Assembly: GCA_958296045.1 (NCBI GenBank)
Contig: CATQHT010000003.1
Location: forward strand, 1,809,246 to 1,873,245
Origin: Rhodothermales bacterium
GTDB lineage: Bacteria > Bacteroidota > Rhodothermia > Rhodothermales > Bin80
Direction of reading: 5' to 3'
DNA length: 64,000 bases
Shown: piece after piece, positions 7,792 through 53,750 of the stretch
Position numbering within the stretch: position 1 is the first letter of the stretch
Layout: the number at the start of each line of letters is the position of its first letter
Made by a program: the position numbers and the translations under genes
The notes under the pieces: model-generated
What the model saw: only the letters and a program-made list of their open reading frames with translations
Database searches by the model: none
Told to the model about the DNA's origin: nothing

Positions 7792-8946
7792 TTACGATGA
7801 ATACTTGCGCAGCATCACCGGCATCAGGAGCATAAGTAGATCCTCTCCAGGATAGTTGATTGCTGGGCGCATAGTGCCGGCCCATTCCGGGTTACCGACC
7901 TCGAAGACCACCTCTTCACTTTCTAGGTGCTGCAGCACGCCCAAGAGGTATTTGGAGTTGTAGGCAAGCACCAGCGTGCCGTCACTGTCCTCTTTGTCTT
8001 CGAACTCACACGGGATGAGTTCAAAGGCCTTATGAGCACGCTCGATATCTTCGGCGCTAATCTTAAGCTCACCGTCTTTGATATCCAGTCGGATTTGGTT
8101 TGCAGCGGAGCCCGCAAAAGGCATGGTGCGGCGGGTAGCAGCCCAGAACAGCTCCCGGTTCGCACGCAGCGTGCGCTCATTGTCTTTGGGCAACACGGCT
8201 TCGTAATTCGGAAATGGCGCGTCCATGACGCGTGTCACCAGTCGTGACGTGTCAAAGTCAAAGGTCGCGTGCTCTTTGCCCATGGTGACCCTGCAATACT
8301 CGCCGCCCGACATGCGGGTCAGACCCTTCAGGCCTCCCACCGGGAGTACCCACTTGCCCTCCTCACGACAGGGTACCTCCAGGGCTTTGAACAGCACTAG
8401 GCGCACGCTGTCCGTGCCAACTAGGCGCAGATGGTCTGGAAACATCTGAAACAGGATCCCCGACAATGCGCTTCCCTGCTTTGACGTGGACACTGCGAAT
8501 CCGGCCTTCTCCACCGCCTTGGTAAGCACGCTTCGCGCTATCACAAAGTGCGGCTCCATCTCCCCCTGGGTGGGCAGGATCGGATAGTCCGCCCCATCGA
8601 GACCGGAAAGCTGGTACTGGCCGGGTCCTGCGCGGACAGTCAGGGCGAAATTCTCGTCCGCCTCAAAGTCGATCGGCACATCCCCCAGATTTCTCACCGT
8701 GCTGAGCAGGTAGCTACCCGGCACCGCGATGCGACGGCCTGGCACCGTCGGTTCCGTTTGAAAATGCACCGGCACACGCTCAACGATGGTGCTATCCAGG
8801 TCGGACGCGGTCAGCCGCAGGTACCCGTCATCCTCCTGCTCAAAGAGGATGTAGCTGAGAATCGGCATTACGGTGCTCCTAGGAAGCGCCGTTGCGACGC
8901 TTTCGAGCGCCATGCCGAGCACCTTGCTGTTGGTCGAGAATTTCAT
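7792..8946 (-). CDS. dnaN: DNA polymerase III beta subunit (sliding clamp)
   Basis: A 384-residue clamp protein that tethers the replicative polymerase to DNA. The N-terminus MKFSTNSKVLGMALESVATALPRS matches the family, with internal AVPGSYLLSTVRNL and the C-terminal YPGEDLLMLLMPVML. It lies 111 bp downstream of dnaA on the same strand, the classical dnaA-dnaN order at a bacterial origin. The dnaA-dnaN gap contains a weak reverse DnaA-box-like TGTGGATG at 8960. Confidence 0.96.
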   Translation of the reverse strand: MKFSTNSKVLGMALESVATALPRSTVMPILSYILFEQEDDGYLRLTASDLDSTIVERVPVHFQTEPTVPGRRIAVPGSYLLSTVRNLGDVPIDFEADENFALTVRAGPGQYQLSGLDGADYPILPTQGEMEPHFVIARSVLTKAVEKAGFAVSTSKQGSALSGILFQMFPDHLRLVGTDSVRLVLFKALEVPCREEGKWVLPVGGLKGLTRMSGGEYCRVTMGKEHATFDFDTSRLVTRVMDAPFPNYEAVLPKDNERTLRANRELFWAATRRTMPFAGSAANQIRLDIKDGELKISAEDIERAHKAFELIPCEFEDKEDSDGTLVLAYNSKYLLGVLQHLESEEVVFEVGNPEWAGTMRPAINYPGEDLLMLLMPVMLRKYSS

Positions 8947-9057
8947 GCAACCTAATAACTGTGGATGCCGAATTTACGTAATCTGCGCCGTTCTGTGGAA
9001 ACGCACAGTGTCTTGTTCCGTGCCCCTGGGCAGAGGGCGAAAAGGCGTGCAGGCGGC

Positions 9058-10497
9058 CTAACTCTCACTGAGAACCTCTTGGATGCGTCGAAATTTCTCC
9101 CGGAACTGCACGTTGGTTTCCGCGTGGTCTTCAACCTTCTTGATCGCATTGATGACGGTCGTATGATCCCGCTTGCCGAACCGCCGGCCGATCTCCTTGA
9201 GCGAGTGCCCTGTGAATTTTCGGCACAGATACATGGCGATGTGCCTTGCCTCCACGATTTCGCGCTTGCGTGATCGGCCATTTAGCAGGTCCTGCTTTAT
9301 CCCGAGGAAATCGGACACGGTCTCTTGAATGGCCTCGACTGTTAGGCGCGTAGGCTGGGTGATGAAGAAGGGTTTCAGCTCGCGCTTGGCCATCTCAAGG
9401 TCTACTTCCTCGGTCTGGAGCATCGACACCGCCATCAGCCGCACCATTGCACCTTCAAGCTCCCGCACGTTGCTCTGGACCTTTCGCGCTACGAAGTTCA
9501 TGACATTTGGCGACAGCTCGATTCCTTCTTCTTCGGCCTTGCAGTTCAGGATAGCCAGCCTCGTCTCAAATTTCGGCGCCTGCAGGTCTGCGGTCATGCC
9601 CATCAGGAATCTGGAAAGCAGGCGTTCCTCAATGCCTTCGATCTGTTTGGGCGGCCGGTCAGCAGTCAGGATGATCTGTTTGCCGATCTGGTGCAGCTCA
9701 TTGAAGGTGTGAAAAAACTCTTCCTGCGTCTTCTCCTTACCGCTGAAGAACTGCACATCATCAATGAGGAGCACATCGATGCTGCGATAATAGCTGGAGA
9801 ACCGGCTGACCTCATTATTCCGAATCGCCTGCACAAAGTCGTTGGTGAAGTGCTCGCTGGACACGAACCGGACGCGTTTCGCTGCGTCCCGCTCCTGCAC
9901 GGCATTGCCTATGGCCTGAATCAGATGGGTTTTGCCCAGGCCCACGCCCCCGTATATGAGAAACGGGTTCCACGTAGTGCCCGGGTCTTTCGCTACAGCC
10001 AGCGCCGCACTGCGCGCGAGCCGATTGCAATGGCCTTCGATGAAGTTCGCAAAGGTGTAGTGCTTGTTCAGCTTGCTGTCCACGGGCGGCAACGAACGGC
10101 CCACCTTTGGATACGTCTTGTTTAGAGCCGCTACGCTTTGGGGCACGCCAGGCTGGGCATTTGGCGCGGACAGCCGCGCTTTAGGCCGCTGGACAGCAGG
10201 TCGGGTCTCATTCGTTTCCGGCGCCTTCTGGTCTTCCAGATTAACCCTGAAGACTAGGCGGCCTTCTGGGCCCAGCACCTGGGTTACTGCACGGTCGTAC
10301 ACCTGATTGTAGTGTGTTTCCAGCCAATCAAGGTAGAACCGGTTTCGCACTTCGACGGTCAGCTGAATCTCTCCATTGACTATTTCCAGATCGACCGGCG
10401 TGATGGGCTGGAACCAGGTCTTAAAGCTGCTGGCATCCACCCCATCCCGGATCACGTCAAGGCAGGACTGCCATATTTCTGCCGTATTGGAGCGCAT
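9058..10497 (-). CDS. dnaA: chromosomal replication initiator DnaA
   Basis: A 479-residue initiator with all four domains. Domain I (about 1-85) includes FKTWFQPITPVDLEI; domain II is a Pro/Ala-rich linker; domain III is the AAA+ ATPase with Walker A GGVGLGKTH and Walker B LLIDDVQF; domain IV carries the DnaA-box recognition signature FTGHSLKEIGRRFGKRDHTTV. It binds DnaA boxes and opens the origin. A cluster of boxes lies upstream at 10995-11203, and a decayed copy of its own domain-I coding region lies between. Confidence 0.98.
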   Translation of the reverse strand: MRSNTAEIWQSCLDVIRDGVDASSFKTWFQPITPVDLEIVNGEIQLTVEVRNRFYLDWLETHYNQVYDRAVTQVLGPEGRLVFRVNLEDQKAPETNETRPAVQRPKARLSAPNAQPGVPQSVAALNKTYPKVGRSLPPVDSKLNKHYTFANFIEGHCNRLARSAALAVAKDPGTTWNPFLIYGGVGLGKTHLIQAIGNAVQERDAAKRVRFVSSEHFTNDFVQAIRNNEVSRFSSYYRSIDVLLIDDVQFFSGKEKTQEEFFHTFNELHQIGKQIILTADRPPKQIEGIEERLLSRFLMGMTADLQAPKFETRLAILNCKAEEEGIELSPNVMNFVARKVQSNVRELEGAMVRLMAVSMLQTEEVDLEMAKRELKPFFITQPTRLTVEAIQETVSDFLGIKQDLLNGRSRKREIVEARHIAMYLCRKFTGHSLKEIGRRFGKRDHTTVINAIKKVEDHAETNVQFREKFRRIQEVLSES

Positions 10498-29318: not shown

Positions 29319-29324
29319 TGAACA

Positions 29325-30597: not shown

Positions 30598-31138
30598 AGA
30601 CACTGACCTCCGGGCAGCTGGACCGTGCGCTGCGTGCAGGCTTGAAGGAGCTTCGTTTGCCGAGTATGCGCGACCGCTACCGGGATACGGCGGACTTGGC
30701 TCGACGGGAGTCTCTGAGCTTTGAACGGTTCTTGTGGGAACTGGTCGAGACGGAAGTGCACACCCGCGCCAAACACCGTATACAGCGCTGGCTCCGGGAA
30801 TCCGGGCTACCGCTGGAGAACACCATGGACACGTGTGACCGGGGTCGGCTGCCAGCTCGAATCGATCATCATGTGAGCGTGCTCCTAGAAGGTGGCTTTC
30901 TGGATCGTAAGGAGCATGTGCTGGCCTTCGGTCCTCCGGCAGCGAAAAGACCACCCTTGCTGTGTGCGCTGGGCCGGGAGCTCATCGTTCAGCACCGCTG
31001 CGTGAAGTTCTATCGCTGCGGCATGATCGCGGAGCAACTACTCGCCGCTAAGCGCGACCTGCGATTACCGCAGCTGCTGAAGCGACTGAGGCAATACGAG
31101 GCGCTGATCCTGGACGACATCGCCTCCGTACAACACAG
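30594..31138 (+). pseudogene. istB 5' part of the older IS21 copy
   Basis: Close match to the intact istB through ALILDDI, overlapping the istA relic by ATGA. The Walker A is ruined (GPPAAKRPP). Similarity stops at about 31138 where a foreign segment enters; the remainder of istB resumes at about 32153. Confidence 0.88.
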
Positions 31139-31174
31139 ACCATCATAAAAGCGAAGTATCGGAGAGCGGGTGCC

Positions 31175-34477: not shown

Positions 34478-36301
34478 GTGGACCGCAACGTAATTGTCGG
34501 CACGATTCTGATGGCTTTGGTCATCATCCTGTGGATGTGGTGGCTCCCGTCACCACAGTTGCCAGAGCCTGCCTTGCAGCCGCCACAGGATTCTTTACAA
34601 GTGCCGGCAGAGCAGCCTACGGTGGAGACAACCGAGTCAGCAGTTACACCACTCCCTGCGCCGGCGCCCGCAGCCCAGGTGATAGATACTACGGTGGCGC
34701 TCACAGGGGAAGAGCGGCATATCACAATAATACATCGCCTCTATGAGGCGGAGATGTCTACCCTTGGCGCCACCTTTACGCGCTTTTCACTGACGCAATA
34801 CCGGAAGTTCGACCAGGAAACACCTGTGGAACTGATAGGCGATGAGCCCGCGCTGGGCCTCCGGTTTCAGTCGCCAGGCGGGCGCAACCGCGATACGCGC
34901 GAATTCTATTACGAGCCCAGCCTGACCACCAACCGCCTAGATGTTCTTGATCAGCCCCGAACCCTGTCGTTTACGACGCCTGCCGGCGCTGGCTGGATTC
35001 GCAAGACCTATACGTTTACGCCAGACAGCTACGAGGTCGGCCTGAAGATTGACATGATCGAGGCCTCCTCATTCCAGTCTGGCGACGGCTATGAAGTGGT
35101 CTGGGCGGGCGCACTCCCTTTCAGCGAGGATATTAACAACCGGAAGGAGGAGATGAACCAGGTGGGAGCCTGGGCCCGCAGCGGCGGCGAGGTGGAAGGA
35201 GTAAACGTGGGCCGGCGTGAAGAGGATGACGTTTCTTTGCGCGGCGATGTGTCTTGGATCGGTGTTAAGAACAAATACTTTGCCGTTGCTGTCATCCCGG
35301 ATGTGCCGGCGCTGGAAGCCTACCTGGCAAGCTCGCGCACGGGCGATGCAGACGATCCCGATGTGGAGATTGACCTCACCGCAAGCCTCTTCATGGGGTC
35401 TCCCAGGCTCGGAGGCGACGAGTTTCGGCTGTACATGGGTCCACTAGACTACACCTATGTGCGCGGCTATGAAGGGCTGTACGGCATGGTGGATTACGGG
35501 TGGGACGGCTTTGAGTGGATCACCCGGCCACTAGCGCGCTTTGTGTTCATCCCGCTCTTCTCATTCCTGAGCTCGCACATCGCCAGCTATGGGCTGGTGA
35601 TCATAGTGTTTTGCATCCTCATCAAGCTGCTGCTGTTTCCTATTACGCGCGTCTCGTACCGCGCTATGGCTGGCATGCGTGAGCTGGCCCCGCAGATGCA
35701 GGAGATAAAGGCGAAATACAAAGATAACCCGCAGAAGCAGCAGCAGGCTACCATGAAGCTGTACAAAGAGACGGGGATGAACCCGCTTAGCAGCTGCCTG
35801 CCCATGCTTTTACAATACCCGATCATCATCGCCCTCTGGCAATTCTTGCAGCAGTCGATCGAGATTCGACAGCAGAGCTTTCTGTGGGCTCCAGACCTGT
35901 CGGCCCCGGATGCCATCCTCAGTCTACCATTCAGCATCCCATTCTATGGCGACTATGTGGCTGGCTTCACGGTACTGATGGGGGTCTCTCTGGTGATTCA
36001 GATGCGTATCCAGTCGGCGCCCACAGGCGGGATGCAGCAGAAGATGATGATGTACGGAATGCCACTCATAATTTTCGTTGTATTCAACCGGCTGCCGTCC
36101 GGGCTCAGCCTGTATTACCTCTGCTACAACATCTTCACCGCGGCGCAGCAGAAGCTCATCAACCTGGGAATCAAGAAGAAGAAGGCTAACGCTCCCCCCA
36201 AGGGCGTCATTCGTGACATTACTCCTAAGAAAGGGCGCCGGGGCAAAGCCTCCAAGGGTGGCAGAGGGAGCATGGGGGGCAAGCCCCTGCGGCGCAGGTA
36301 G
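34478..36301 (+). CDS. yidC: membrane protein insertase YidC
   Basis: A 607-residue insertase of the YidC/Oxa1/Alb3 family. An N-terminal membrane helix (IVGTILMALVIILWMWWL) is followed by a large periplasmic beta domain (about 60-350) and a five-helix core starting PLFSFLSSHIASYGLVIIVFCI, with LASAL-type loop replaced by GMNPLSSCLPMLLQYPIIIALWQF, typical of the family. The tail is basic (KKGRRGKASKGGRG). It inserts membrane proteins with or without Sec. A GTG start is used. Confidence 0.96.
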   Translation: MDRNVIVGTILMALVIILWMWWLPSPQLPEPALQPPQDSLQVPAEQPTVETTESAVTPLPAPAPAAQVIDTTVALTGEERHITIIHRLYEAEMSTLGATFTRFSLTQYRKFDQETPVELIGDEPALGLRFQSPGGRNRDTREFYYEPSLTTNRLDVLDQPRTLSFTTPAGAGWIRKTYTFTPDSYEVGLKIDMIEASSFQSGDGYEVVWAGALPFSEDINNRKEEMNQVGAWARSGGEVEGVNVGRREEDDVSLRGDVSWIGVKNKYFAVAVIPDVPALEAYLASSRTGDADDPDVEIDLTASLFMGSPRLGGDEFRLYMGPLDYTYVRGYEGLYGMVDYGWDGFEWITRPLARFVFIPLFSFLSSHIASYGLVIIVFCILIKLLLFPITRVSYRAMAGMRELAPQMQEIKAKYKDNPQKQQQATMKLYKETGMNPLSSCLPMLLQYPIIIALWQFLQQSIEIRQQSFLWAPDLSAPDAILSLPFSIPFYGDYVAGFTVLMGVSLVIQMRIQSAPTGGMQQKMMMYGMPLIIFVVFNRLPSGLSLYYLCYNIFTAAQQKLINLGIKKKKANAPPKGVIRDITPKKGRRGKASKGGRGSMGGKPLRRR

Positions 36302-36312
36302 GACGCCGGGCT

Positions 36313-37656
36313 ATGGCAACCTCCGACACTGTAGCCGCCATTGCCACCGCGCGCGGCAGGGCGGCTTTGGCGATTGTGCGCGCCAGCGGACCGGAAGCCA
36401 TTGTAGTGGCTTCACGCTGCTTCGAGGGCCAAGACCTCACGACCGTACCCGCGCATACGCTGCATGTGGGGCTGTGGCATGCGGATGACGGCACGGCCGT
36501 AGATCAGGTAGTGTGCGCCGTCTATCGCGCGCCCCGCTCATATACCGGCGAAGACATGGTCGAGGTCTCCTGCCACGGAGGCGACTATGTGGTGGCGCGC
36601 GTCCTTGATAGCCTGGTAGCCAGCGGGGCCCGCCTCGCAGCTCCCGGTGAATTCACGCAGCGCGCCTTTTTAAACGGCAAACTCGATCTGGTGCAGGCCG
36701 AGGCCGTGGCGGACCTTATCCACTCTTCCTCGGCCCGTGCGCACCGTGCTTCCATGGACAGCCTGCGCGGCCGCTATTCAGAAGCCATCGGATCGCTGCG
36801 TGACACGCTTCTGGAAGTGGCCGCGCTGGCGGAGCTGGAGATTGACTTCTCCGATGAGGATGTGGAGTTTGCGGATCGCGGCGCCTTGGCGTCGCTTCTT
36901 GCCCGCACCCAGTCCCTCCTGCGGGCAGCACTGGACTCCTTCGCGCTGGGCGTGCTCGTCAAAGAAGGCGTGCGTGTAGTGATAGCCGGGCGCCCCAACG
37001 CGGGCAAGTCCACGCTGCTTAATGCGCTGGTGGGCGAGGACCGCGCCATAGTAAGTGACACGCCCGGCACTACACGCGACACGGTCACCGCTGACCAAGA
37101 GATTGACGGGCTGCTGTTTCGTTTCACGGACACTGCAGGTCTGCATGACTCCCGGGACCTCATTGAGCAGGAAGGCGTGCGCCGCTCGCGAGAGGCGGTA
37201 CGCCGAGCGGACCTTGTGCTGTATGTCTACGACGCGGCGGTCGGATTTCAGGCCGTGGAGCAGGAGTTTGTCCGATCCATCGAGGTCGCCCCCGTACTCG
37301 TCGTCGGCAATAAGGTGGACTTAGCTCCGGTCACGCACGGCCTTGTCGTGTCAGCACTGGCGGCGCGCCAAGACCATACGGAGCTGAATGACCTGCGCAT
37401 CGCGCTCGTTCGAGCTGTTGAGAAGTGTGCGGCAGACCCGGTGAGGCTGGTCACCAGCGCACGGCATCAGGGCCATCTGGTGCGTGCTGCTGATGCGGTA
37501 GAACGCTCACTTGAGGCGCTACGCACAGGCATGCCGGTGGACATCCTTACGCTGGATCTGCGCGCCGCGCTTCACGAGCTCGGCTGCATCACAGGAGCGG
37601 TCACCACCGAAGAGGTGCTGAGCGCCATCTTTTCCAAGTTCTGTATTGGCAAATGA
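36313..37656 (+). CDS. mnmE: tRNA modification GTPase MnmE
   Basis: A 447-residue GTPase which with MnmG builds the cmnm5 modification on U34 of several tRNAs. An N-terminal tetrahydrofolate-binding domain is followed by the embedded G domain with G1 GRPNAGKST, G3 DTAG and G4 NKVD, and the invariant C-terminal CIGK whose Cys is catalytic. It follows yidC by 11 bp, so probably one operon. Confidence 0.97.
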   Translation: MATSDTVAAIATARGRAALAIVRASGPEAIVVASRCFEGQDLTTVPAHTLHVGLWHADDGTAVDQVVCAVYRAPRSYTGEDMVEVSCHGGDYVVARVLDSLVASGARLAAPGEFTQRAFLNGKLDLVQAEAVADLIHSSSARAHRASMDSLRGRYSEAIGSLRDTLLEVAALAELEIDFSDEDVEFADRGALASLLARTQSLLRAALDSFALGVLVKEGVRVVIAGRPNAGKSTLLNALVGEDRAIVSDTPGTTRDTVTADQEIDGLLFRFTDTAGLHDSRDLIEQEGVRRSREAVRRADLVLYVYDAAVGFQAVEQEFVRSIEVAPVLVVGNKVDLAPVTHGLVVSALAARQDHTELNDLRIALVRAVEKCAADPVRLVTSARHQGHLVRAADAVERSLEALRTGMPVDILTLDLRAALHELGCITGAVTTEEVLSAIFSKFCIGK

Positions 37657-37981
37657 TCGTCCTTGTTTTGCATAACGCAGAGGCTGATAAGCAATATAGA
37701 CGCAGGTACGATGTCTGGAACTAACGTAATTCGGCCCAAGTAGGAACACACATGATTACGGTAAACTGCGCAGCTAATTGCGGTTAGTGCCCAGCGTGAG
37801 GCTCAGTATAGAGCGTGGTGGCAAGTCGTCTAGGGTGCAGTAAGGCCTTGATGCCATGCAGAAACATAACCAGGTGCTCAGGGCTGTGCTTGAGCAAGTA
37901 CCCAGGGAACAGCCCTTCGCATGTATACTCTGGTAATAGATCTGCATAAGCACCGGTCGGCGCAGAGCAAAGCACGATTCG
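37657..37981. other. intergenic between mnmE and mnmG
   Basis: About 325 bp without a supported gene. Its length suggests that mnmG has its own promoter; no clear signal could be named. Confidence 0.4.
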
Positions 37982-39874
37982 TTGGCGAAGTTTGATGTCA
38001 TTGTAGTAGGCGGCGGCCATGCTGGCACGGAGGCGGCTGCGGCCGCTGCCCGCATGGGTGCGCGCACGCTGCTCATTACGATGAGCCTCGAAGCTCTCGG
38101 CCGCATGTCGTGCAACCCCGCCATAGGCGGCATCGGCAAAGGGCATATCGTGCGTGAAGTCGACGCGCTTGGCGGCATCATGGGACGCGCGTCCGACGCG
38201 GCTGGCATCCAGTTTCGGATGCTAAACCGGCGTAAGGGCCCGGCTGTGTGGGGCCCTAGGGCACAATGTGACCGAGTGGAGTACGCCACGGCGGTGCGAG
38301 AGGCGCTAGAGTCAGAAGAGCGGCTGTACTTCCGGGCGGATGTGGTGACTTCGGTGACCACCGCGCAAGGTCGCGTGACAGGCGTGGAAACGCAGCTTGG
38401 CACCACCATCCAGGCCGACGCTGTGATCCTAACCAGCGGCACTTTTATGAACGGTGTGGTCCACGTGGGTGCCAAAACGTTTGGCGGAGGGCGGATGGGG
38501 GAGCGCGCCACACGCGGCCTCACGGGATGCCTTCACCGGCTCGGATTCCAGTCTGGAAGGCTAAAGACAGGAACGCCGCCTAGAGTTGACGGCCGCTCTC
38601 TCGATTACAGCAGCCTGAAGGAGCAGACGGGCGATCCCAACCCCACCCCATTCTCCTTCATGTCGGATCAGCTGCCGCTGTGTCAGGTGAGCTGCTGGAT
38701 TACACATACCTCACCTGCGGTACATGACATCTTGCGCACGGGATTTGATCTCAGCCCCATGTTTGCTGGGCGCATTCAGGGACGCGGACCCCGGTATTGC
38801 CCTTCCATAGAAGACAAGATTGACCGGTTTGCCAGCCGGGACCGGCACCAGCTGTTTCTGGAGCCGGAAGGACTGCGCACCACAGAGGTGTACGTCAACG
38901 GGTTTTCCACGAGCCTGCCAGAGGACGTTCAGCAGCGTGCCCTGCGCCGCATAAAGGGGATGGAAGCGGTGCACATGTTGCGGCCCGGGTATGCGATCGA
39001 ATACGACTACTTTCCACCCTACCAGCTTCAGTACTCATTGGCCACGAAGCGCGTACCGGGTCTGTTTTTTGGCGGCCAAATCAACGGCACCACGGGATAC
39101 GAAGAGGCCGCGGCCCAAGGCCTGATGGCTGGCATCAATGCGGTGCGCTATCTCACTCGCGAAGAGCCCGTGGTATTGAGTCGTGCACAGGGCTACATCG
39201 GCGTATTGGTGGACGACCTTATCGCTAAGGGTACCGATGAACCTTACCGCATGTTCACGTCGCGTGCAGAGCACCGCATCTTGCTGCGCCAGGACAATGC
39301 CGACTTGCGCCTGACCGCCCTGGGCCGTGACCTGGGGCTCGTCTGCGAGACCCGCTTTGCAAGGATGCAAGCCAAGCGGGATGCCATACGTGCCACGCTT
39401 GAATCCCTCAAGAAAGTAACGGTTCGTCCCCACGAAGTGAATCCGTACCTGGAGTCTGTAAATACGCGGCCCCTGGCCAAGCCCACGCGACTGGTTAGGC
39501 TGGTACTAAGACCCGAGGTCTCCCTCAAGCCCCTGCTTAAGGCTATCGGCCAGCGATGCGCCCGTCAGGCGCCGGGTATGGAGGATGTAGCACTCCTGGT
39601 GGAAACCGATCTCAAGTACGCGGGATATGTGCGGCGCCAGAAAGAGGAAGCCGAAAGGATGAAGCGTCTGGAGTCACGCTGCATGCCGCGCGCTATCGAC
39701 TACGCAGCCCTTACCAGCCTCAGCTCGGAAGCCCGTGAAAAGCTCAGCTTGGTGCAACCTGAAACTCTGGGGCAGGCTTCCCGCATCAGCGGGGTCAGTG
39801 CAGCGGACCTTTCCGTCCTGATGGTCTTAGTTAGCCGGACCTCGCCACATGCCGCCTCAGCGGTCAGTGCATGA
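37982..39874 (+). CDS. mnmG: tRNA uridine-5-carboxymethylaminomethyl modification enzyme MnmG
   Basis: A 630-residue FAD enzyme, partner of MnmE. The dinucleotide-binding motif VVGGGHAGTEAA is at the N-terminus, with SCNPAIGGIGKGHIVREVDALGG and the FFGGQINGTTGYEEAAAQGL signature. It starts with TTG at 37982, directly before KFDVIVVGGG; no better start exists. The 3' end overlaps rsmG by 26 bp. Confidence 0.96.
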   Translation: MAKFDVIVVGGGHAGTEAAAAAARMGARTLLITMSLEALGRMSCNPAIGGIGKGHIVREVDALGGIMGRASDAAGIQFRMLNRRKGPAVWGPRAQCDRVEYATAVREALESEERLYFRADVVTSVTTAQGRVTGVETQLGTTIQADAVILTSGTFMNGVVHVGAKTFGGGRMGERATRGLTGCLHRLGFQSGRLKTGTPPRVDGRSLDYSSLKEQTGDPNPTPFSFMSDQLPLCQVSCWITHTSPAVHDILRTGFDLSPMFAGRIQGRGPRYCPSIEDKIDRFASRDRHQLFLEPEGLRTTEVYVNGFSTSLPEDVQQRALRRIKGMEAVHMLRPGYAIEYDYFPPYQLQYSLATKRVPGLFFGGQINGTTGYEEAAAQGLMAGINAVRYLTREEPVVLSRAQGYIGVLVDDLIAKGTDEPYRMFTSRAEHRILLRQDNADLRLTALGRDLGLVCETRFARMQAKRDAIRATLESLKKVTVRPHEVNPYLESVNTRPLAKPTRLVRLVLRPEVSLKPLLKAIGQRCARQAPGMEDVALLVETDLKYAGYVRRQKEEAERMKRLESRCMPRAIDYAALTSLSSEAREKLSLVQPETLGQASRISGVSAADLSVLMVLVSRTSPHAASAVSA

Positions 39875-40499
39875 CCTATTGGACACCGGCGTTCTTGAAC
39901 GCCTGCGTCATTTTGAGGCTGCCTTCTTGCGTCTTAACCGGCGGCACAGGCTCATGGCGCGAGGAGAGGATACGCATTTCTGGGAGCGCCACATAAGGCA
40001 CAGCCTAGCCCTTTGTGCGCGTCCTTTCCCCTCGAGCGCCCGTGTGGTAGACTGGGGCACCGGTGGCGGGCTACCGGCGTTGCCACTGGCTATCGCTCAG
40101 CCCTCGCTGCATGTAATAGCTGTGGACTCCGTGCAGAAAAAGGTCTGGGCGGTGCGCCTTCTCGTGCGTGAGCTGGGCTTGGATAATGTGGATACGTGGT
40201 GCGGCCGAGCGCAGGAGTATCCAGACGTAGCTACGCACAGCATAAGCCGCGCAACGGCTTGCCTGGCTACGCTTTGGCAGTGGCACCAGTGCGTGGCTGC
40301 CCCAGGCGCTCGTAATCAGGCAAGATCAGACGACACGGAGTGGGCACCTGGCCTGCTCTGCTTGAAGGGAGGCGACTTATCTTCTGAACTACATGCGCTG
40401 CGTCGGGCAGATGATCTGCTCCGCGTTACGCGGATGCCACTCGACCATATGGGACCATGGTTTCGCACCAAGGCGGTGGTACACGTTCACCGGCCGTAA
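39849..40499 (+). CDS. rsmG: 16S rRNA (guanine-N7) methyltransferase RsmG
   Basis: A 216-residue SAM methyltransferase that modifies G527 (E. coli numbering) of 16S rRNA. Motif I is VVDWGTGGGLPALPLAI, with HIRHSLAL upstream and the RAQEY (usually RAE) block downstream. The usual order mnmG-rsmG is kept, but parA/parB, which often follow, do not. Confidence 0.92.
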   Translation: MPPQRSVHDLLDTGVLERLRHFEAAFLRLNRRHRLMARGEDTHFWERHIRHSLALCARPFPSSARVVDWGTGGGLPALPLAIAQPSLHVIAVDSVQKKVWAVRLLVRELGLDNVDTWCGRAQEYPDVATHSISRATACLATLWQWHQCVAAPGARNQARSDDTEWAPGLLCLKGGDLSSELHALRRADDLLRVTRMPLDHMGPWFRTKAVVHVHRP

Positions 40500-40506: not shown

Positions 40507-41517
40507 ATGAATTCCAATTGGCAGGAAGATGTCCCGAAGCGGCTTGAGCGGCTTCTGGACCTGATCGCATATATCAGTGGCAAGAAAACGTTGCCCGCCC
40601 GAAAGCTGATGGCCGAGGAATTTGGGGTTACGGTGCGGACAATCTACAGGGACCTCCAGTTGTTGACCAGGCGCGGCTACATCCTGCCTGCGGGCAAGGA
40701 TAGTGGTATCGAGGTGGATGGGGAGAAGGGACGCGTGCTTCCGCTGCTAAGGTTGTCGCGGCGGCAGGCGGCCGCATTTCAGATTGGCATGGAGTTCATC
40801 AAGCTTCGCTCCGGCTCTGACATAAGGGAAGAGGCGGAAAAGGTGGCGGACAGGGTGCGGTCCGTGCTGCACGGAGCCAGCCGCGCATATTTTGATGCGC
40901 TGATAAACAGTACGGCGCTGGATCCTTACCTGCTGCATGAGGTACCGCCACACAAGCACTGGACGCAGATCACAGATGCTATCGCAACCCAGAGCAGCTT
41001 ATACCTACAATACTTCGTTCGCAGCCGCGCGGAAATCACCCGCCGTATAGTGTGGCCACTCGGCCTTGTGCTGTACTTGGATCACTGGAACCTTATTGCG
41101 TTTGATAAGGATAAGAATGACTTCCGGCAATTCACGCTCGACTATATTCAAAAGGCGGATAAGCTTGCTGCAACATTCAAGCCGCCGGATGGCTTCAGCC
41201 TTAGGCAATACTTGGCCGACCGAGCCGCAAGCAAACACGGCACCAAGGTCAAAGTGAGCTTTACCTCACCGAGCTATCCGATGGCGAGGCGTGCCATCCC
41301 CGCCAAGCCTTTGGAAGAGGTTGACGATGGCAAGCATGTCACGGTCACCTTCAACTTCGACAACCTGGAATTCCTGGCCGAGTACCTACTGCGTTTTGGC
41401 CAGGAGATCCAGGTGCTGGAGCCGGAGTCACTGCGCCAAGACATTCGTGCGGCTGCGCTGAAGGTGGCGGGCATATACGATCAGTCCCCAGAGCCAGTGG
41501 CGGGCCGCCCAGCCTGA
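40507..41517 (+). CDS. WYL-domain transcriptional regulator
   Basis: A 336-residue regulator: an N-terminal winged HTH of the HTH_11/DeoR-like type (RKLMAEEFGVTVRTIYRDLQLLTRRGY, about residues 35-61) and a WYL-type ligand-sensing domain (PLGLVLYLDHWNLIAFDKDKNDFRQF, about 180-205, with WNL in place of WYL), then a C-terminal WCX-like extension. WYL regulators often respond to DNA or nucleic-acid ligands. ATG at 40507 chosen; 7 bp after rsmG. Its 3' end overlaps mfd's 3' end by 37 bp on the opposite strand. Confidence 0.85.
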   Translation: MNSNWQEDVPKRLERLLDLIAYISGKKTLPARKLMAEEFGVTVRTIYRDLQLLTRRGYILPAGKDSGIEVDGEKGRVLPLLRLSRRQAAAFQIGMEFIKLRSGSDIREEAEKVADRVRSVLHGASRAYFDALINSTALDPYLLHEVPPHKHWTQITDAIATQSSLYLQYFVRSRAEITRRIVWPLGLVLYLDHWNLIAFDKDKNDFRQFTLDYIQKADKLAATFKPPDGFSLRQYLADRAASKHGTKVKVSFTSPSYPMARRAIPAKPLEEVDDGKHVTVTFNFDNLEFLAEYLLRFGQEIQVLEPESLRQDIRAAALKVAGIYDQSPEPVAGRPA

Positions 41518-44500
41518 TCCGACAGCTGCTGCATCAGTGCCAATGCCACCTTCATTGAAAGCACTTGCTGCACAATGGCACGCGGAACGCCGCGCTTGGA
41601 AGGCTTCATGGCATACCGGTGTCCAGTATTGTCCAAGCGCTCCATCAGCGGCTGTAACACGTATTTCCGAAAGTGTGGCACATCCATCGGCAGATGAAGA
41701 AAGAGGCGCTGGCGCCTATAGCTGACACGCGGAAGCCCTAGTTTCTGGGCATGCATCTTCATTCTCGCCGCAGCCAACAGGTTGCGAGCTTCTTTGGGAA
41801 GCGGACCAAACCGGTCCTTCAGCTCATCACGAAGGTCATCGAGCTGCTCTGGTGCGCCGATCTCGCTTATGCGGCGATAGAGCCCAAGCCGCTCCAGGTC
41901 GCTGTCCACGTAGCTCACCGGCAATGAGGCGGCCAGCTCTGTATCCACCTGTGTTTCCGTAGCTGCTGGCGGCGGTGGCTCACCATTTGATAGAGCGGGA
42001 AACTCCGCTGCGCGCAGCTCCTGCACGGCTTCATCTAGGATCTGCTGATAGGTAGACAGACCCAGGTCGGCGATGAAACCACTCTGTTCGCCGCCCAATA
42101 CGTTGCCCGCGCCACGGATGTCCAGGTCGCGCATGGCAATCTGAAACCCACTGCCAAGGTTGCTCAGCTGTTCAACCGCGCGCAGGCGCTGCCGTGCTTC
42201 ACGCGTAAGCGCATGGATCGAGGGTACCAGGAGGTAGCAGAAGGCTCTGCGATGGCTGCGACCGACACGCCCGCGTAGTTGATGCAGCTCTGCCAGCCCG
42301 AACCTATGCGCCCCGTGGATAATCATGGTGTTGGCATTAGCGATGTCAAGCCCGTTTTCAATGATTGTCGTGGACACAAGCACATCCGCTTTGCGGTCCA
42401 CAAAGGCTGCCATTGCACGCTCCATCTCTGCGGCCCGCATCTGGCCGTGGGCCACCTGAATCCGCGCGCCAGGCGCCAGCGCTTCAATCATGTCGGCGGC
42501 CTCACCAATGGAGCGCACCCGGTTATGCACAAAAAAGACTTGACCACCTCTGCTCAGTTCGTACAGGATGGCGTCGCGAATCAGTCCCTTATCAAAGGAA
42601 TGAATCTCCGTGACGATGGGCTGCCGGTTCGGTGGCGGAGTGCTGATAATGGATAGGTCTCGCGCGCCCATCAGCGAAAACTGAAGCGTTCTGGGTATGG
42701 GCGTGGCCGTAAGCGTGAGCGTATCGATGTTGACCCGCATCTGGCGCAACCGCTCTTTGACGCCTACCCCAAACCGTTGCTCCTCGTCAACTACCAGCAG
42801 GCCAAGATCTTTGAATTCCACATCTTTCGAGATGATGCGATGCGTGCCGATCAGGATGTCTACCGCGCCGGACTTCAAGTCTTTCAGTATTTGACGCGTT
42901 GCCTTGGAGGCGCGATGTCGTGAAAGCATCTCTACCCGTACAGGAAAGTGTTCCAGGCGCTCCGCAAACGTGGCTTCGTGCTGACGCGCCAACACGGTAG
43001 TTGGCACGAGCACGGCCACCTGCTTTTCGTCCTGCACCGCCTTGAAAGCGGCCCGAACGGCCACCTCCGTCTTCCCAAATCCCACATCGCCACATACGAG
43101 GCGGTCCATGGGGGCAGGGGCCTCCATGTCCCGTTTGACCTCGTGACTTGCGCTGTACTGGTCCGGCGTGTCTTCAAAAGCGAAGGACGCTTCCATCTCC
43201 TGCTGCCAGACCGTGTCAGTCGAGAAGGGGTGGCCTTTCGAAGCCTTGCGCTGTGCGTAGAGCTTTATCAGGTCCCTGGCAATGTCCTTGATCCGCTTCT
43301 TCGTTCTCCGCTTTTTGCGCTCCCACTGGCCAGAGCCCAGCTTCGTCAGCTTGGGTTGGTGACCCTCTTTGCCAGTGTACTTGTGCAGTTTGTACAGCGC
43401 GTTGACGTTCACGTAGAGCACGTCCCCTCCGGCATAGTGCACACGCACCGCTTCCTGCTCTTTGCCACGTACTGTGATGGTGCGAAAGCCGGCGAACGTT
43501 CCGACACCGAAGTCTGAATGCACCACGTAGTCCCCGGGATGCAGGCTGCGCAGCTCATGCAGGCGGATGCCCCCGTGCTGCTTTCGGCGGCGCGTCGTAG
43601 CCCGATAGTAGCGGCCGAATATGTCGTGATCCGTATATACGGCTAGGTCAGCAGATGGCAGCCTGAAGCCCTGGTGCAGCGACTCACCTACGAGCCGCAC
43701 CCACCCCTGCTGAATGGCGTCATCCAGCAGCCCCTTCAGCCGCTTTATTTGGTTGTCGCTTTCGCAGAGTATGTACGTGCTGGTTCCGGTTTCAGCATTT
43801 TCAGCCAGGTGGGCCCGCAGCAGCTTGAATTGACGGTTGAATGCGGGCTGGGCCCAAGCCCCGGCGTCAATCGTGGTAGCCGTCATTGGCTGCTCTGCAA
43901 ACGTGCCGAAATACAATCGTGGACGCACCATCAGCAGTGACTGCAGCCTGGCTCCATCCAGATACCGTTTGGCGGGCGGCACCAGTGGTGCCTTGTCTTC
44001 CGCCTGCTTATACCGCTCTGAGGCAGCCGTAAACAAATCGGTGGCCAGTGGCTCATGACGTTGGCTGTCAAACAGCACCATAAGCGCATCGGCTGGCAGA
44101 TAGTCAAACAGGGAGGCCCAGGTGGTGCGGCTCGCCTCAAAGTGCTCCAGTCGCGGTGCGATGCGTGCCTGCCGCAGTTCGCTTATTGACCGTTGGGAGC
44201 GCGGGTCAAATTCGCGCAGGGAGTCTACATCGTCACCGAAAAACTCGATGCGAATGGGATAGTCTCCCGCAAAAGAGTAGATATCCACGATACCGCCACG
44301 CCATGCTACTTCGCCGGGCTGATCCACGAACCGAACGCGCTCGAAGTCTTGGCGCACCAGGTCTTCCACCAGCTTTTGCGGCGCCACCGTATCGCCCAGC
44401 GCAATGTTGCGAGAGGCCTGCCGCACAGCACCCAATGACGGTGTGCGCTCTACCAGAGCCGGCACGCTGGTCACCAGCACGCCACATCGTTGTTCTGTAA

Positions 44501-44852
44501 GCTGCTGCAGCACATCTGCACGACGCACCAGAGGCTCGGAGCGCGTATCCTGCTCCTGGTTGTACGGAATCTGGCCACTGGGAGGAAAAAGAAACAGATC
44601 CGCGCTGGAGCCCGCGATGCGGGACAGGTCGCTGTGCAAATAGACCGCGTCTTCAGGCTCTGGGAGCACGCACATTGTGAATCGCCGGGTCACCTGCCAC
44701 AGACGGTGCAGCAGAAAGGCAGGCAGGGATCCCGCCGCACCTCGCACAATGAGGGGATCTTCAGCGCCGCTTCGAGCCCAGCGGATCAGTGCATGACAGA
44801 GGGTAGTTCTCCCGATCCTGCCAACGATATCGTGCAGCGGCAAGTCACTCAC
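41481..44852 (-). CDS. mfd: transcription-repair coupling factor
   Basis: A 1123-residue translocase that removes stalled RNA polymerase and recruits UvrA. The N-terminal UvrB-like modules are followed by the RNAP-interacting Tudor-like domain (LHPGDYVVHSDFGVGTFAGF), then RecA-like lobes with Walker A GDVGFGKT, motif II DEEQRFG, motif III TATPIPRTL, and motif VI QLRGRVGRS, and the C-terminal TRCF domain. It is convergent with the WYL regulator (37-bp overlap), so their transcripts collide at the 3' ends. Confidence 0.97.
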   Translation of the reverse strand: MSDLPLHDIVGRIGRTTLCHALIRWARSGAEDPLIVRGAAGSLPAFLLHRLWQVTRRFTMCVLPEPEDAVYLHSDLSRIAGSSADLFLFPPSGQIPYNQEQDTRSEPLVRRADVLQQLTEQRCGVLVTSVPALVERTPSLGAVRQASRNIALGDTVAPQKLVEDLVRQDFERVRFVDQPGEVAWRGGIVDIYSFAGDYPIRIEFFGDDVDSLREFDPRSQRSISELRQARIAPRLEHFEASRTTWASLFDYLPADALMVLFDSQRHEPLATDLFTAASERYKQAEDKAPLVPPAKRYLDGARLQSLLMVRPRLYFGTFAEQPMTATTIDAGAWAQPAFNRQFKLLRAHLAENAETGTSTYILCESDNQIKRLKGLLDDAIQQGWVRLVGESLHQGFRLPSADLAVYTDHDIFGRYYRATTRRRKQHGGIRLHELRSLHPGDYVVHSDFGVGTFAGFRTITVRGKEQEAVRVHYAGGDVLYVNVNALYKLHKYTGKEGHQPKLTKLGSGQWERKKRRTKKRIKDIARDLIKLYAQRKASKGHPFSTDTVWQQEMEASFAFEDTPDQYSASHEVKRDMEAPAPMDRLVCGDVGFGKTEVAVRAAFKAVQDEKQVAVLVPTTVLARQHEATFAERLEHFPVRVEMLSRHRASKATRQILKDLKSGAVDILIGTHRIISKDVEFKDLGLLVVDEEQRFGVGVKERLRQMRVNIDTLTLTATPIPRTLQFSLMGARDLSIISTPPPNRQPIVTEIHSFDKGLIRDAILYELSRGGQVFFVHNRVRSIGEAADMIEALAPGARIQVAHGQMRAAEMERAMAAFVDRKADVLVSTTIIENGLDIANANTMIIHGAHRFGLAELHQLRGRVGRSHRRAFCYLLVPSIHALTREARQRLRAVEQLSNLGSGFQIAMRDLDIRGAGNVLGGEQSGFIADLGLSTYQQILDEAVQELRAAEFPALSNGEPPPPAATETQVDTELAASLPVSYVDSDLERLGLYRRISEIGAPEQLDDLRDELKDRFGPLPKEARNLLAAARMKMHAQKLGLPRVSYRRQRLFLHLPMDVPHFRKYVLQPLMERLDNTGHRYAMKPSKRGVPRAIVQQVLSMKVALALMQQLSDQAGRPATGSGD

Positions 44853-44958: not shown

Positions 44959-44974
44959 TGTTTCACGTGAAACA
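44959..44974. promoter_or_regulatory. parS: parS site 1
   Basis: Perfect 16-bp TGTTTCACGTGAAACA, the ParB/Spo0J recognition palindrome. Located between mfd and the giant exported protein gene, about 34 kb from the oriC candidate. Confidence 0.93.
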
Positions 44975-49548: not shown

Positions 49549-49595
49549 AAGGAGGTGAACCAATGGCTCTTTCGCTGCAGCCGTGTTTCACGTGA
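49549..49595 (+). other. strong ribosome-binding site with a 10-codon ORF ending inside parS
   Basis: AAGGAGGTGA (49549-49558) stands 7 bp before ATG at 49563, an almost perfect anti-16S match. The ORF reads MALSLQPCFT and stops at TGA 49593-49595, which lies within the parS palindrome. It may be the stump of a lost gene or a leader peptide. No homology can be claimed. Confidence 0.4.
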
Positions 49596-49599
49596 AACA
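49584..49599. promoter_or_regulatory. parS: parS site 2
   Basis: Perfect TGTTTCACGTGAAACA, first site of cassette A. Confidence 0.93.
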
Positions 49600-49692
49600 T
49601 CGAGGTGGCCAGCCTACAGGAGTGGAAGGCTCGGTTGCTTAGCCTGAGCGCGAGTCGGTGCGGGGACAAATGCGCGTCCCGCTTGCAGCAAA

Positions 49693-49708
49693 TGTTTCAC
49701 GTGAAACA
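49693..49708. promoter_or_regulatory. parS: parS site 3
   Basis: Perfect TGTTTCACGTGAAACA, second site of cassette A, 109 bp from site 2. Confidence 0.93.
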
Positions 49709-49908
49709 TCGCGGTTGTTGGGTGGAGCCCACTCCTTGGGAAACATGGACTCCTGAAGCACGCACAGGCATAGGCCAAGGGGGCGGCCTCCTGCGACAAC
49801 ATCTGCGACGACAGAGCACCCACAACGGCGACCTGCACCGGATCAGAGAGCCTCACGTAGCACCGTAGCAGCAGCGACATGCCGCTCACAATATTCACTC
49901 GATTGCGT

Positions 49909-49966
49909 TGCCAGGCACCTGTGTCGTTGGCTGTTTCGTCGTGTCGCTCAATAGGTGCCAGGCACC
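49909..49966. repeat. GGTGCCAGGCACC palindrome pair
   Basis: TGCCAGGCACC at 49909-49919 and the full GGTGCCAGGCACC at 49954-49966. This word recurs in many genomes as a REP-like or transposon-derived palindrome. Only these two copies were noticed here. Confidence 0.5.
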
Positions 49967-50090
49967 GACGCACCAGATGGGCTACGAGTATCCAGCGACA
50001 TCACTGGCTGCCATACTCTTGAGCCGCAGGCCTCGGATTCACGATTCCTGCAGCTCCATGGGCGGACCTTCTGTGCCCAGGCTGCGAACG

Positions 50091-50106
50091 TGTTTCACGT
50101 GAAACA
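50091..50106. promoter_or_regulatory. parS: parS site 4
   Basis: Perfect TGTTTCACGTGAAACA, first site of cassette B. Confidence 0.93.
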
Positions 50107-50200
50107 TCGAGGTGGCCAGCCTACAGGAGTGGAAGGCTCGGTTGCTTAGCCTGAGCGCGAGTCGGTGCGGGGGACAAATGCGCGCCCCGCTTGCAGCAAA

Positions 50201-50216
50201 TGTTTCACGTGAAACA
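50201..50216. promoter_or_regulatory. parS: parS site 5
   Basis: Perfect TGTTTCACGTGAAACA, second site of cassette B, 110 bp from site 4. Confidence 0.93.
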
Positions 50217-50457
50217 TCGCGGTTGTTGGGTGGAGCCCACTCCATTCGATAGCGAGACCGCGGCCACAGGGGGAGCGGAAAACCCCAGATGCTCCGGCCT
50301 GCTACGTTTCGCTGTTCAAGGAAGGGGACCCGTAATAACCCGCGTAAGTCGTTCGACGTGGAGGCCACCAACACCAATTACAGAACCGCGAAGCTGAGGA
50401 GCCATATCGCACAGCTTCCGACGCGGCCTAAGAATCCAGCTGTCTGGGGGCGTTGTA

Positions 50458-50543: not shown

Positions 50544-53500
50544 CTACGCAGGTGCCAGCAGCTTTTCGATATAGTCACCATTCTCATCTGGAAAAAGAAT
50601 ATGCCGTTCAGCGAATTCCTCTTTCGACCATAGTGCTCCATATCGCAGCCGTAATTCGCGGTACTCCGTGGCTGACACGATGAACGAATCTAGGCTTACG
50701 ACGCCGGCTACGTTACTCCGACTCGCGATTCCCTCTGCTAGGATCGGCAATTGTTCGTGCAGCCGCGCCTTCTCGTCCTCTTCGTAGGCCTTGGCGTGCA
50801 CCATCCCGTGAGGCTCTACGAAAATAACACGCTGCCGGTCGCCTGTAATCATCCACAGTATGAAGTCCGGGTAGAATCCGGTTCCTTCCAGAGAAAAGCC
50901 TACACCTCGCCCACGTCCCTGATTCCGCAGCAGGAAGAGCTCTGTATCTGGGTACAGTGTGCTGCCACGCTGCTGCCAAAAGTCGCGCAGATGGCGCACA
51001 AACCCCGCTTCACTTTCGTTCAAGGGAAGGGGTGAGACTGTTACCGCCGGGTTCGAGCTTTGGATCAGCAGAGGCTGGTACAAGTGGCGGTCGAAGTAGA
51101 TGCGACGCAGCGAGCCGTTCTCCTGCTCGTAGAGCTTTTCCTGCTGCTCAATCAGATCCACGATCTGACTAAAGAGATTCGCTTGCTCCCGAGGAGCGCT
51201 TACAGCGTAATGGGACTGGTGTAGTGCGCTTGGCTTCGACGCCGCGCCACGGCTAACGTTGTGTAGCAAGTTCAAGTCGGAGTCATCCACCACGCGGTAT
51301 CTCATGCGCACACTCTCCCACCGGCTACGTGCGCGCTTCCAGCACTTATCCGCACAGCATCGGAGCATCGTACGCACGATCGCCTGCAGATCTTCACGGT
51401 CTCGCCAGTTCCGGGGAGTGAAAACATGCTGGTCAGCCAGGACCCTAACGGGTGCTTTTTCGACAAGAGACTTAAGAGTGCTCGGTCGGGGAATAGCCAA
51501 GGCATGCATGCCCTTAATGCGCCGATATAACATCAGGTCCAGGTAAGCCTCTTCCCAGTCTACCAGTCTCAAGGGAAGGTCCGACACGTCGCGTTCGAAC
51601 CCTGCAGTACCCTCCGAAATCTGCTGCCCGCTGGCACTGACTTCCCATGCCGACGCTCGTGTAACACGGTCAATCAGAATTGGTGCTAACTGTTCTGTAT
51701 CAAGCGCGAAGTTGGATTGCGACTCGAAATCGACTCCGTCAGGGAGCGCAGGAACCTTCAGCCCTCTATCCAGGAATTTCTCATTGGTGCGCACGGGTAC
51801 GCGCAGGGACACGGGATCCCTCGTTTCCAGACCCTCCGTCTCCAGATACTCACGGAATTTCGTCATATAGTCTGCCCGAACTGAAAAGATGTTGAGGGTT
51901 TCTAGCAGACCAATGTTCGCTGGATGCTGCCCCTCCAAGTAAGTACTGCGCTTGAGCGACATTCCCTTCCCTTTAAGTCTCACGCCGCGCCCGAAAAGCT
52001 GGATGATCTCTGAACCTTTGGCTCTGCCCACGTTCATAAGGCCCATACTCGATACCCGCCACGAATTCCAGCCTTCGACGAACTTCTTGGCGCCTATCAG
52101 TACGTTGACTGTAGCTCCCTTTTCGTTGATTCCGTCAAATATTGTGCCGCCAACCGCGTCTTGTTCCAGGATAATGCCCCCTCCTGCCTTCTGAGCGAGT
52201 TTTTTAAACTTCGCGGTATCGCCGATGTAGGTGAGGCCGAAATAGTGGTCCGCACCTACCGCTTTGAGTCCAAGTTCTCCCGGCGCCCCCAAAATATCGC
52301 ACAGGCGGAGGCCAGCGGGGCCACTGGTATGAAACACGCTACGGAGCATATCAGCGTAAATCTCTTCCGATGTTCCCTGGGACTGCGCTAAGTCGTTGAA
52401 ACGACCGTCGAATAGATCCACGTTCCAGGCGGAGTGAAGTCCAGATTTTCCCCGCAACAGCTTTCCGATGGCATCCTTTGCCCACCTTGAATCGCTGAGC
52501 ACACGATGGAGAAAGAGTTGGATAGCAAGAACATCGCTTGTTTCGCGCCCGCGCCTCTTGTATACCGCGTTGACACTTCCACCGACAAAAATCCAGAGAG
52601 GCTTTTCCAAATTGTAGGCACGCATGTCGGATGCGTTGTCGCGGTAGGTACACAATTGCTCGTAGAAGGACAGAAGATTGCCAAGCAGGAGCAGATTAGT
52701 TAGCGCTGGCGGAGGGTCGCTCCCTGCCACGTTGAGGACGCGAAAGTCCTTTCCGAAACCATCGCGGTGGAAGTAACGGTAAGAGTAATCGAAAACTATG
52801 GACTTGCCGTAGTCAAGGGTAAGCTTGTTGTCCCGCGCTACTGCCAGCGCCTGTCCAAAGGTAGCACTGTACTCAAAGGTGAAACCACGGTCGGCGATTG
52901 CGTTTCGTACCGAATGCCATACTTCACCACTCGCGCCACGGTGGCCTTCGTCCACAAACACGAGATTGCGGTCGCCGAGGGCATCGACTTCTATGCTAAC
53001 ACCCGTTCTTCCCCTGCGCTTCTCAACCAGCTTGGTGATCTCCGTCACCCACACGGTTTTGGGATGGCCTGCGAGCAATCCTACATCTCCAAAGCGGGCA
53101 GACGGAATTCCAGACGCGGTCAATTCCTCCATGTGCTGCGCACTCAACCCCTCGTTGGGTGTAACCAGGATGATGTTTTCCAAGCGAGCACTACCGAAGT
53201 AATGCAGATACTGCAAGTAATTCAGGTGCATGATCAGCGTCTTACCGCTGCCGGTCGCCATCCAGAATGCGAGCTTATTCAAGTCGTCCGTTTCGATTCT
53301 GCGGACTGGGTAGTTACTTGGTAGAGAATGGACCCGTTGACGAACGTAGCTATGGATTTCACTTGCAAGCCTCACAGGGTCTGTAGCTAGGCGGTCCAGG
53401 AACAGTTCGGCGTATAGTGCGCCCAACTGCTGGAAGTAGCGCAAGATTATTGGATCTCGCCTACGCTCGTTGATGGACCGCAAGTGACGTTGCACGTTGT

Positions 53501-53750
53501 CGTCATATCGGGCCAAGTCCCCGGGCGGAATCAAGCAGTAATCCCGGGCGCCTAGCATACGCGCAACATGGCTGCGGCCGCCTGCGTCGTACCCCTCGCT
53601 TGCGCTCTTCATCACATCAAAGAGCATCTGGTTAGTCCTGAACCCGAATTTCTGATTGGCCCAACCGAGTAGCATGAGTTGCGACTCGAGCTGGTATAGA
53701 GTCTTGGACGAAGTCACTGAGGGACGCCCCGCTCGTTTCCTGCGGGCCAT
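50544..53750 (-). CDS. res: type III-like restriction endonuclease/helicase subunit
   Basis: A 1068-residue SF2 helicase-nuclease. Motif I is WMATGSGKT (about residue 165), motif II VFVDEGHRG (about 265), motif VI IIQLFGRGVRLKG (about 590). Near the C-terminus GFYPDFILWM...VIFVEPHG (about 955-985) resembles the PD-(D/E)xK nuclease core, but the lysine position reads His (EPH). It should cut or translocate on foreign DNA with the methyltransferase partner, whose stop overlaps its start (TAATG). Not certain that it is a classical type III Res. Confidence 0.85.
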   Translation of the reverse strand: MARRKRAGRPSVTSSKTLYQLESQLMLLGWANQKFGFRTNQMLFDVMKSASEGYDAGGRSHVARMLGARDYCLIPPGDLARYDDNVQRHLRSINERRRDPIILRYFQQLGALYAELFLDRLATDPVRLASEIHSYVRQRVHSLPSNYPVRRIETDDLNKLAFWMATGSGKTLIMHLNYLQYLHYFGSARLENIILVTPNEGLSAQHMEELTASGIPSARFGDVGLLAGHPKTVWVTEITKLVEKRRGRTGVSIEVDALGDRNLVFVDEGHRGASGEVWHSVRNAIADRGFTFEYSATFGQALAVARDNKLTLDYGKSIVFDYSYRYFHRDGFGKDFRVLNVAGSDPPPALTNLLLLGNLLSFYEQLCTYRDNASDMRAYNLEKPLWIFVGGSVNAVYKRRGRETSDVLAIQLFLHRVLSDSRWAKDAIGKLLRGKSGLHSAWNVDLFDGRFNDLAQSQGTSEEIYADMLRSVFHTSGPAGLRLCDILGAPGELGLKAVGADHYFGLTYIGDTAKFKKLAQKAGGGIILEQDAVGGTIFDGINEKGATVNVLIGAKKFVEGWNSWRVSSMGLMNVGRAKGSEIIQLFGRGVRLKGKGMSLKRSTYLEGQHPANIGLLETLNIFSVRADYMTKFREYLETEGLETRDPVSLRVPVRTNEKFLDRGLKVPALPDGVDFESQSNFALDTEQLAPILIDRVTRASAWEVSASGQQISEGTAGFERDVSDLPLRLVDWEEAYLDLMLYRRIKGMHALAIPRPSTLKSLVEKAPVRVLADQHVFTPRNWRDREDLQAIVRTMLRCCADKCWKRARSRWESVRMRYRVVDDSDLNLLHNVSRGAASKPSALHQSHYAVSAPREQANLFSQIVDLIEQQEKLYEQENGSLRRIYFDRHLYQPLLIQSSNPAVTVSPLPLNESEAGFVRHLRDFWQQRGSTLYPDTELFLLRNQGRGRGVGFSLEGTGFYPDFILWMITGDRQRVIFVEPHGMVHAKAYEEDEKARLHEQLPILAEGIASRSNVAGVVSLDSFIVSATEYRELRLRYGALWSKEEFAERHILFPDENGDYIEKLLAPA

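What the first reader, a model, noticed from the sequence alone, without database searches (positions are those of the whole stretch)
49582..50243. Two near-identical 154-bp cassettes, each with two perfect parS sites
Four of the five parS sites lie in a duplicated unit with only about two differences between copies. parS sites are usually scattered singly; a duplicated double-parS cassette suggests recent duplication or strong selection for ParB loading dose.
Basis: seen in the sequence. Interest (0 to 1): 0.7.

Follow-up and report, generated by a model that had tools for sequence, protein, structure and literature searches.

The report
Duplicated centromere sites near replication origin
This bacterium carries all five of its chromosome-segregation (parS) sites in one 5-kb stretch near the replication origin, four of them in a recently copied 154-bp piece of DNA; this is a local copy-number variant of a well-known system, in a position beside the gene mfd that its whole order shares.

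Summary
Two cassettes, 49582-49735 (154 bp) and 50089-50243 (155 bp), differ by one substitution and one inserted G, and each carries two perfect TGTTTCACGTGAAACA sites. With the site at 44959 these are all the parS sites (up to 2 mismatches) in the 4.78-Mb genome. The cassette occurs nowhere else in this genome and not in 58 related genomes, so the duplication looks recent and specific to this lineage.

The locus is the chromosomal centromere: the window also holds dnaA, dnaN and yidC-mnmE-mnmG-rsmG, and the genome's ParB has the parS-type residues (R173, G201). In 47 of 50 sampled genomes of the order, parS lies within 8 kb of mfd (36 within 1 kb), often in groups of two or three. So 'usually scattered singly' does not hold here; clustering is widespread in the order.

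Most likely the extra sites modestly raise ParB-CTP clamp loading. Selection for dose is not shown: two changes in 154 bp cannot separate it from neutral duplication. An assembly error is unlikely, since unique spacer and flanks separate unequal copies. This is a new example of a known kind. The less usual point is the mfd-anchored parS locus with parAB about 0.1-1 Mb away.

The parts
44959..44974 (.). parS site 1, perfect palindrome TGTTTCACGTGAAACA, 107 bp upstream of mfd; the position shared with relatives (ancestral)
49582..49735 (+). Cassette copy 1 (154 bp)
49584..49599 (.). parS site 2, perfect, at the left end of cassette copy 1
49693..49708 (.). parS site 3, perfect, in cassette copy 1, 109 bp from site 2
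49736..50088 (.). Single-copy 353-bp spacer between the cassettes; no homology elsewhere in the genome
50089..50243 (+). Cassette copy 2 (155 bp; one extra G and one T->C relative to copy 1)
50091..50106 (.). parS site 4, perfect, at the left end of cassette copy 2
50201..50216 (.). parS site 5, perfect, in cassette copy 2, 110 bp from site 4
41481..44852 (-). mfd (transcription-repair coupling factor), the gene that parS accompanies across the order
   Evidence: (TIGR00580, 977 bits)
34478..40499 (+). yidC-mnmE-mnmG-rsmG, classic origin-region gene cluster
7792..10497 (-). dnaN and dnaA; two perfect DnaA boxes TTATCCACA at 11026 and 11195 lie just upstream

Best explanation
The locus is the chromosome's centromere region. 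ParB-CTP dimers from the parAB operon elsewhere in the genome load at the five parS sites, close into sliding clamps, spread over the neighbouring DNA, form one partition complex about 40 kb from dnaA, are moved by ParA and recruit SMC. Across the order parS sites, usually one to three per group, are kept beside mfd. In this lineage a 154-bp piece holding two sites was copied once, about 500 bp away, in a 1.4-kb non-coding gap, so the number of sites rose from three to five. The extra sites should raise local clamp loading and add redundancy, but probably have a modest or no phenotype. Shown by sequence: the sites, the duplication, the location, the ParB specificity residues and the conserved position. 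Inferred from other species: loading, spreading, segregation and SMC recruitment. Not shown: selection for the extra copies.
For: All five perfect parS of the genome are in 5.3 kb. dnaA, dnaN, yidC-mnmE-mnmG-rsmG are in the same window. In the closest complete relative, G002, the cumulative GC-skew minimum (about 1.44-1.55 Mb) coincides with dnaA (1.512 Mb) and parS (1.532-1.537 Mb). parS lies within 8 kb of mfd in 47 of 50 sampled genomes of the order (own included), 36 within 1 kb. The genome has a chromosomal-type parA-parB operon whose ParB keeps R173 and G201 (motifs CKGRSTVANSLRLLRLP, ITAGHARALL), the residues absolutely conserved in parS-binding ParB (PMC7383237). SMC is present (893 bits). 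In vitro, condensation force rises with parS number (PMC8299390). The cassette is in no relative and only twice in this genome.
Against: ParB binding was not measured. A single parS suffices for segregation in P. aeruginosa and C. glutamicum, so extra sites may do nothing measurable. GC skew in the window's own contig shows no clean minimum, so the origin position rests on gene content and on the relative. No same-genus genome was available, so the age of the duplication is known only from copy identity.
Confidence: 0.85

Rival explanations
1. Neutral duplication: the 154-bp piece was copied by chance in non-coding DNA (for example by replication slippage or repair), and the four sites are only redundant. 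The locus is still the centromere, but the copy number has no selected role.
For: A single parS suffices in other species (PMC4368675, PMC7083940). parS number in the family varies 1-5 and in the order 0-7 among otherwise similar genomes. The DNA between the two sites is nearly as well conserved between copies as the sites themselves.
Against: All four duplicated sites are still perfect, but with two changes per 154 bp this is expected without selection as well. Other lineages in the order carry 2-3 clustered sites, which hints at a benefit.
Confidence: 0.45
2. Selection for ParB loading dose: five closely spaced sites are kept because they speed clamp loading and strengthen condensation near the origin.
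For: Condensation force rises with parS number, with 5-7 sites needed against force in vitro (PMC8299390). Multi-site clusters recur in the order, including triplets on both sides of mfd in genus g8.
Against: No direct test. Sister genera manage with one to three sites.
Confidence: 0.4
3. Assembly artefact: only one cassette exists.
For: No reads could be examined; the genome is a four-contig assembly.
Against: The copies differ at two positions, are separated by 353 bp of unique sequence, have different flanks on both outer sides, and lie inside a 2.9-Mb contig.
Confidence: 0.04
4. Mobile-element or plasmid parS: the cassettes came with an integrated element that has its own partition system.
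For: Insertion sequences and a group II intron are common in the window; a second ParB-like gene exists at C3:2466582.
Against: No parA/parB lies beside the cassettes, the sites match the chromosomal 16-bp consensus, the position beside mfd is shared across the order, and the second ParB lies 0.6 Mb away near an IS21 element.
Confidence: 0.03

Closest known systems
Chromosomal ParABS centromere clusters (P. aeruginosa parS1-4; C. glutamicum ten sites in 35 kb)
   Same: Same 16-bp palindrome type, several sites clustered close to oriC, chromosomal ParA/ParB and SMC present
   Different: Here four of the five sites sit in a recently duplicated cassette, and all sites are within 5.3 kb; parAB lies on another contig instead of near the sites
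Myxococcus xanthus parS array (24 sites in the origin-proximal region, PMC3778016)
   Same: Many parS sites packed in a short stretch near the origin
   Different: Five sites, not 24; there the array is drawn as part of the parABS locus, here parAB is elsewhere
mfd-linked parS of related genomes in the same order (for example genus g8 with parS triplets on both sides of mfd)
   Same: Same position beside mfd, same consensus, small clusters of sites
   Different: The 154-bp cassette and its duplication are found only in this genome

Membership tests
Chromosomal ParABS centromere (parS cluster) | Matches the 16-bp parS consensus more often than chance | tested here: met
   Five perfect sites against 0.17 expected at up to 3 mismatches
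Chromosomal ParABS centromere (parS cluster) | Close to the replication origin | tested here: met
   About 40 kb from dnaA, with dnaN, yidC, mnmE, mnmG, rsmG in the window; skew minimum at the orthologous place in G002, no clean minimum in the own contig
Chromosomal ParABS centromere (parS cluster) | Genome encodes chromosomal-type ParA and ParB with N-terminal CTPase, HTH and dimerisation domains | tested here: met
   PF02195, PF17762, PF23552 in ParB; AAA_31 in ParA; adjacent genes
Chromosomal ParABS centromere (parS cluster) | ParB has parS-type specificity residues R173 and G201, not the Noc set Q/K/K/R | tested here: met
   R, S, R, G at 173/179/184/201 by alignment; no NBS site in the window
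Chromosomal ParABS centromere (parS cluster) | ParB binds the sites in the cell and they drive segregation | not testable with these tools
   Needs ChIP-seq or imaging
Recent segmental duplication | Two near-identical copies absent from relatives | tested here: met
   99% identity over 154 bp; no full-length copy in 58 relatives
Noc-NBS nucleoid occlusion | Sites match TATTTCCCGGGAAATA and the protein has Q173/R201 | tested here: not met
   No NBS in the window; ParB has R and G, although its overall sequence scores higher with Noc chains and the Noc model than with ParB, below the Noc cut-off

The most novel reading that the evidence does not exclude
In this order the centromere is anchored to mfd and kept apart from parAB, and local cassette duplication is an active way of tuning parS number, so that natural strains differing in cassette number form a ready-made dose series for ParB loading.
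Probability: 0.15. Interest if true: 0.5.

Novelty: new member of a known kind. Interest (0 to 1): 0.3.

Why it matters
Why parS number varies between species, and what drives the clustering, are listed as open questions (PMC7333895). A recent duplication of a two-site unit shows one concrete way in which numbers rise. The order-wide link between parS and mfd gives a fixed reference point for comparing centromere architecture, and the separation of parS from parAB in these genomes is worth knowing for anyone annotating them.

Tried and rejected
Repetitive or mobile spacer: the 353-bp spacer is single-copy; its GGTGCCAGGCACC inverted repeat has only two perfect copies in the genome and is not a REP family. 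Structured RNA: the cassette folds with z = -3.1, but the main stem is one parS palindrome pairing with the other, so this follows from the two palindromes and is not evidence of an RNA; no Rfam match there. Coding: ORFs over the cassettes (49614-49973 and 50039-50377, minus strand) contain the parS letters and were not taken as genes. An internal ancient duplication inside the cassette was looked for by aligning the two half-units and gave only a trivial match. Noc-type sites: none. Paper searches for mfd-linked parS found nothing on the subject; the main comparative survey of parS sites (Livny 2007) is not held.

Full report
Observation. The window holds five perfect parS palindromes (TGTTTCACGTGAAACA) at 44959, 49584, 49693, 50091 and 50201. 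A dinucleotide-preserving shuffle expects 0.17 sites with up to three mismatches, and none of 100 shuffles reaches five. Four of them sit in two cassettes, 49582-49735 (154 bp) and 50089-50243 (155 bp), which differ by one extra G in a G-run and one T->C. The copies are separated by 353 bp of sequence found nowhere else in the genome, and their outer flanks are unrelated.

Whole genome. The window lies in contig C3 of a 4.78-Mb, four-contig assembly. With up to two mismatches the genome has no other parS, and the cassette occurs only at these two places. So this is the only parS locus, and all sites are within 5.3 kb.

Where it lies. The same window carries dnaN and dnaA (7792-10497), two perfect DnaA boxes at 11026 and 11195, and yidC-mnmE-mnmG-rsmG (34478-40499), followed by a WYL regulator and mfd (41481-44852). 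This is the usual gene content of an origin region. Sampled GC skew of the closest complete relative, G002, has its cumulative minimum at about 1.44-1.55 Mb, where its dnaA (1.512 Mb) and parS sites (1.532-1.537 Mb) lie. The window's own contig shows no clean minimum.

Relatives. The named organisms among the closest mfd matches are a Rhodothermaceae MAG and Longimonas halophila; I take the order to be Rhodothermales, by inference. In 59 genomes searched (58 relatives and the window's own) the number of sites at up to one mismatch ranges from 0 to 7. I fetched up to 20 kb around parS in 50 of them, chosen by their parS match and not by mfd. mfd was present in 47 of the 50 stretches, always within 8 kb of a parS site and in 36 within 1 kb; two of the three exceptions are short contigs. 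The sites lie upstream of mfd, downstream, or both; genus g8 has groups of sites on both sides with conserved spacing, and pairs 45-70 bp apart occur in several genera. In the window's own family most genomes have one or two sites, G004 has three within 365 bp, and this genome has the most. The site at 44959, 107 bp upstream of mfd, is in the shared place; the cassettes lie beyond a 4.1-kb gene for a secreted glucose/sorbosone-dehydrogenase-like protein. A full-length cassette is in no relative; matches there are confined to the parS itself with a few flanking bases.

The protein that reads the sites. The chromosomal parA-parB pair is on contig C2. By alignment the ParB has R, S, R and G at the four positions that decide between parS and the Noc site (Caulobacter numbering 173, 179, 184, 201; the numbering was carried over by motif alignment). 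[quoted passage not shown] Its overall sequence scores best with Noc structures and with the Noc model, but below that model's cut-off; the window has no Noc site. SMC is present. From these, the standard mechanism is inferred: ParB-CTP clamps load at parS, spread, interact with ParA and recruit SMC (PMC7333895).

What the duplication means. Copying is recent by identity and was found only in this lineage. More parS sites raise loading and condensation force in vitro (PMC8299390). Yet one site suffices for segregation in P. aeruginosa and C. glutamicum. Two differences in 154 bp cannot tell selection from drift, so I give the neutral and the dose readings about equal weight; both are sub-readings of the centromere explanation, so their confidences do not add up with it. 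An assembly error is unlikely because the copies are unequal and separated by unique DNA, but reads were not available.

Compared with what is known. Origin-proximal parS clusters are ordinary: four in P. aeruginosa, ten in C. glutamicum, 24 in M. xanthus, up to 20-23 in Streptomyces and Listeria. This is a new example of that kind, with a clear duplication step. What I did not find described in the papers available is the order-wide anchoring of parS beside mfd, together with a parAB operon that lies about 0.1-1 Mb away in the complete relatives; the main survey of parS sites could not be read, so I make no claim that this is unreported.

Noticed in passing
Related genomes G002, G017, G022, G026, G028, G039, G048, G053; own genome C2:~480700-482600 (L172:4728-6564): The parAB operon lies about 0.5-1.0 Mb from the parS/mfd locus in the complete relatives (0.10 Mb in G053), and on another contig here, not next to rsmG as in many bacteria.
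   Followed up: partly
L289-L292, L156 (genus g8 of the same order): mfd is flanked by groups of parS sites (mostly triplets) on both sides with nearly constant spacing across five species.
   Followed up: partly
window 50544-56911, minus strand: A ResIII-helicase protein and an N6/N4 DNA methylase form a type III-like restriction-modification pair directly beside the parS cluster.
   Followed up: no
window 45025-49122, minus strand: A 1365-aa secreted protein (GSDH domain, Calx-beta repeats, C-terminal sorting tail) lies between parS site 1 and the cassettes; no match in relatives' mfd loci.
   Followed up: no
window 19993-22506 and 26929-31148: A group II intron with its reverse transcriptase, and IS21-type istA/istB copies, interrupt the origin region between dnaA and yidC; istB-like genes occur many times in the genome.
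   Followed up: no
G000:C3:2466582-2466920 (L173:5112-5936): A second ParB-like gene, weaker match and shorter aligned part, near an IS21 copy and a SNF2-type gene; probably from a mobile element.
   Followed up: partly
L172:4728-5618, minus strand: The chromosomal ParB scores higher with Noc structures and the Noc model than with ParB, although its specificity residues are of parS type.
   Followed up: partly
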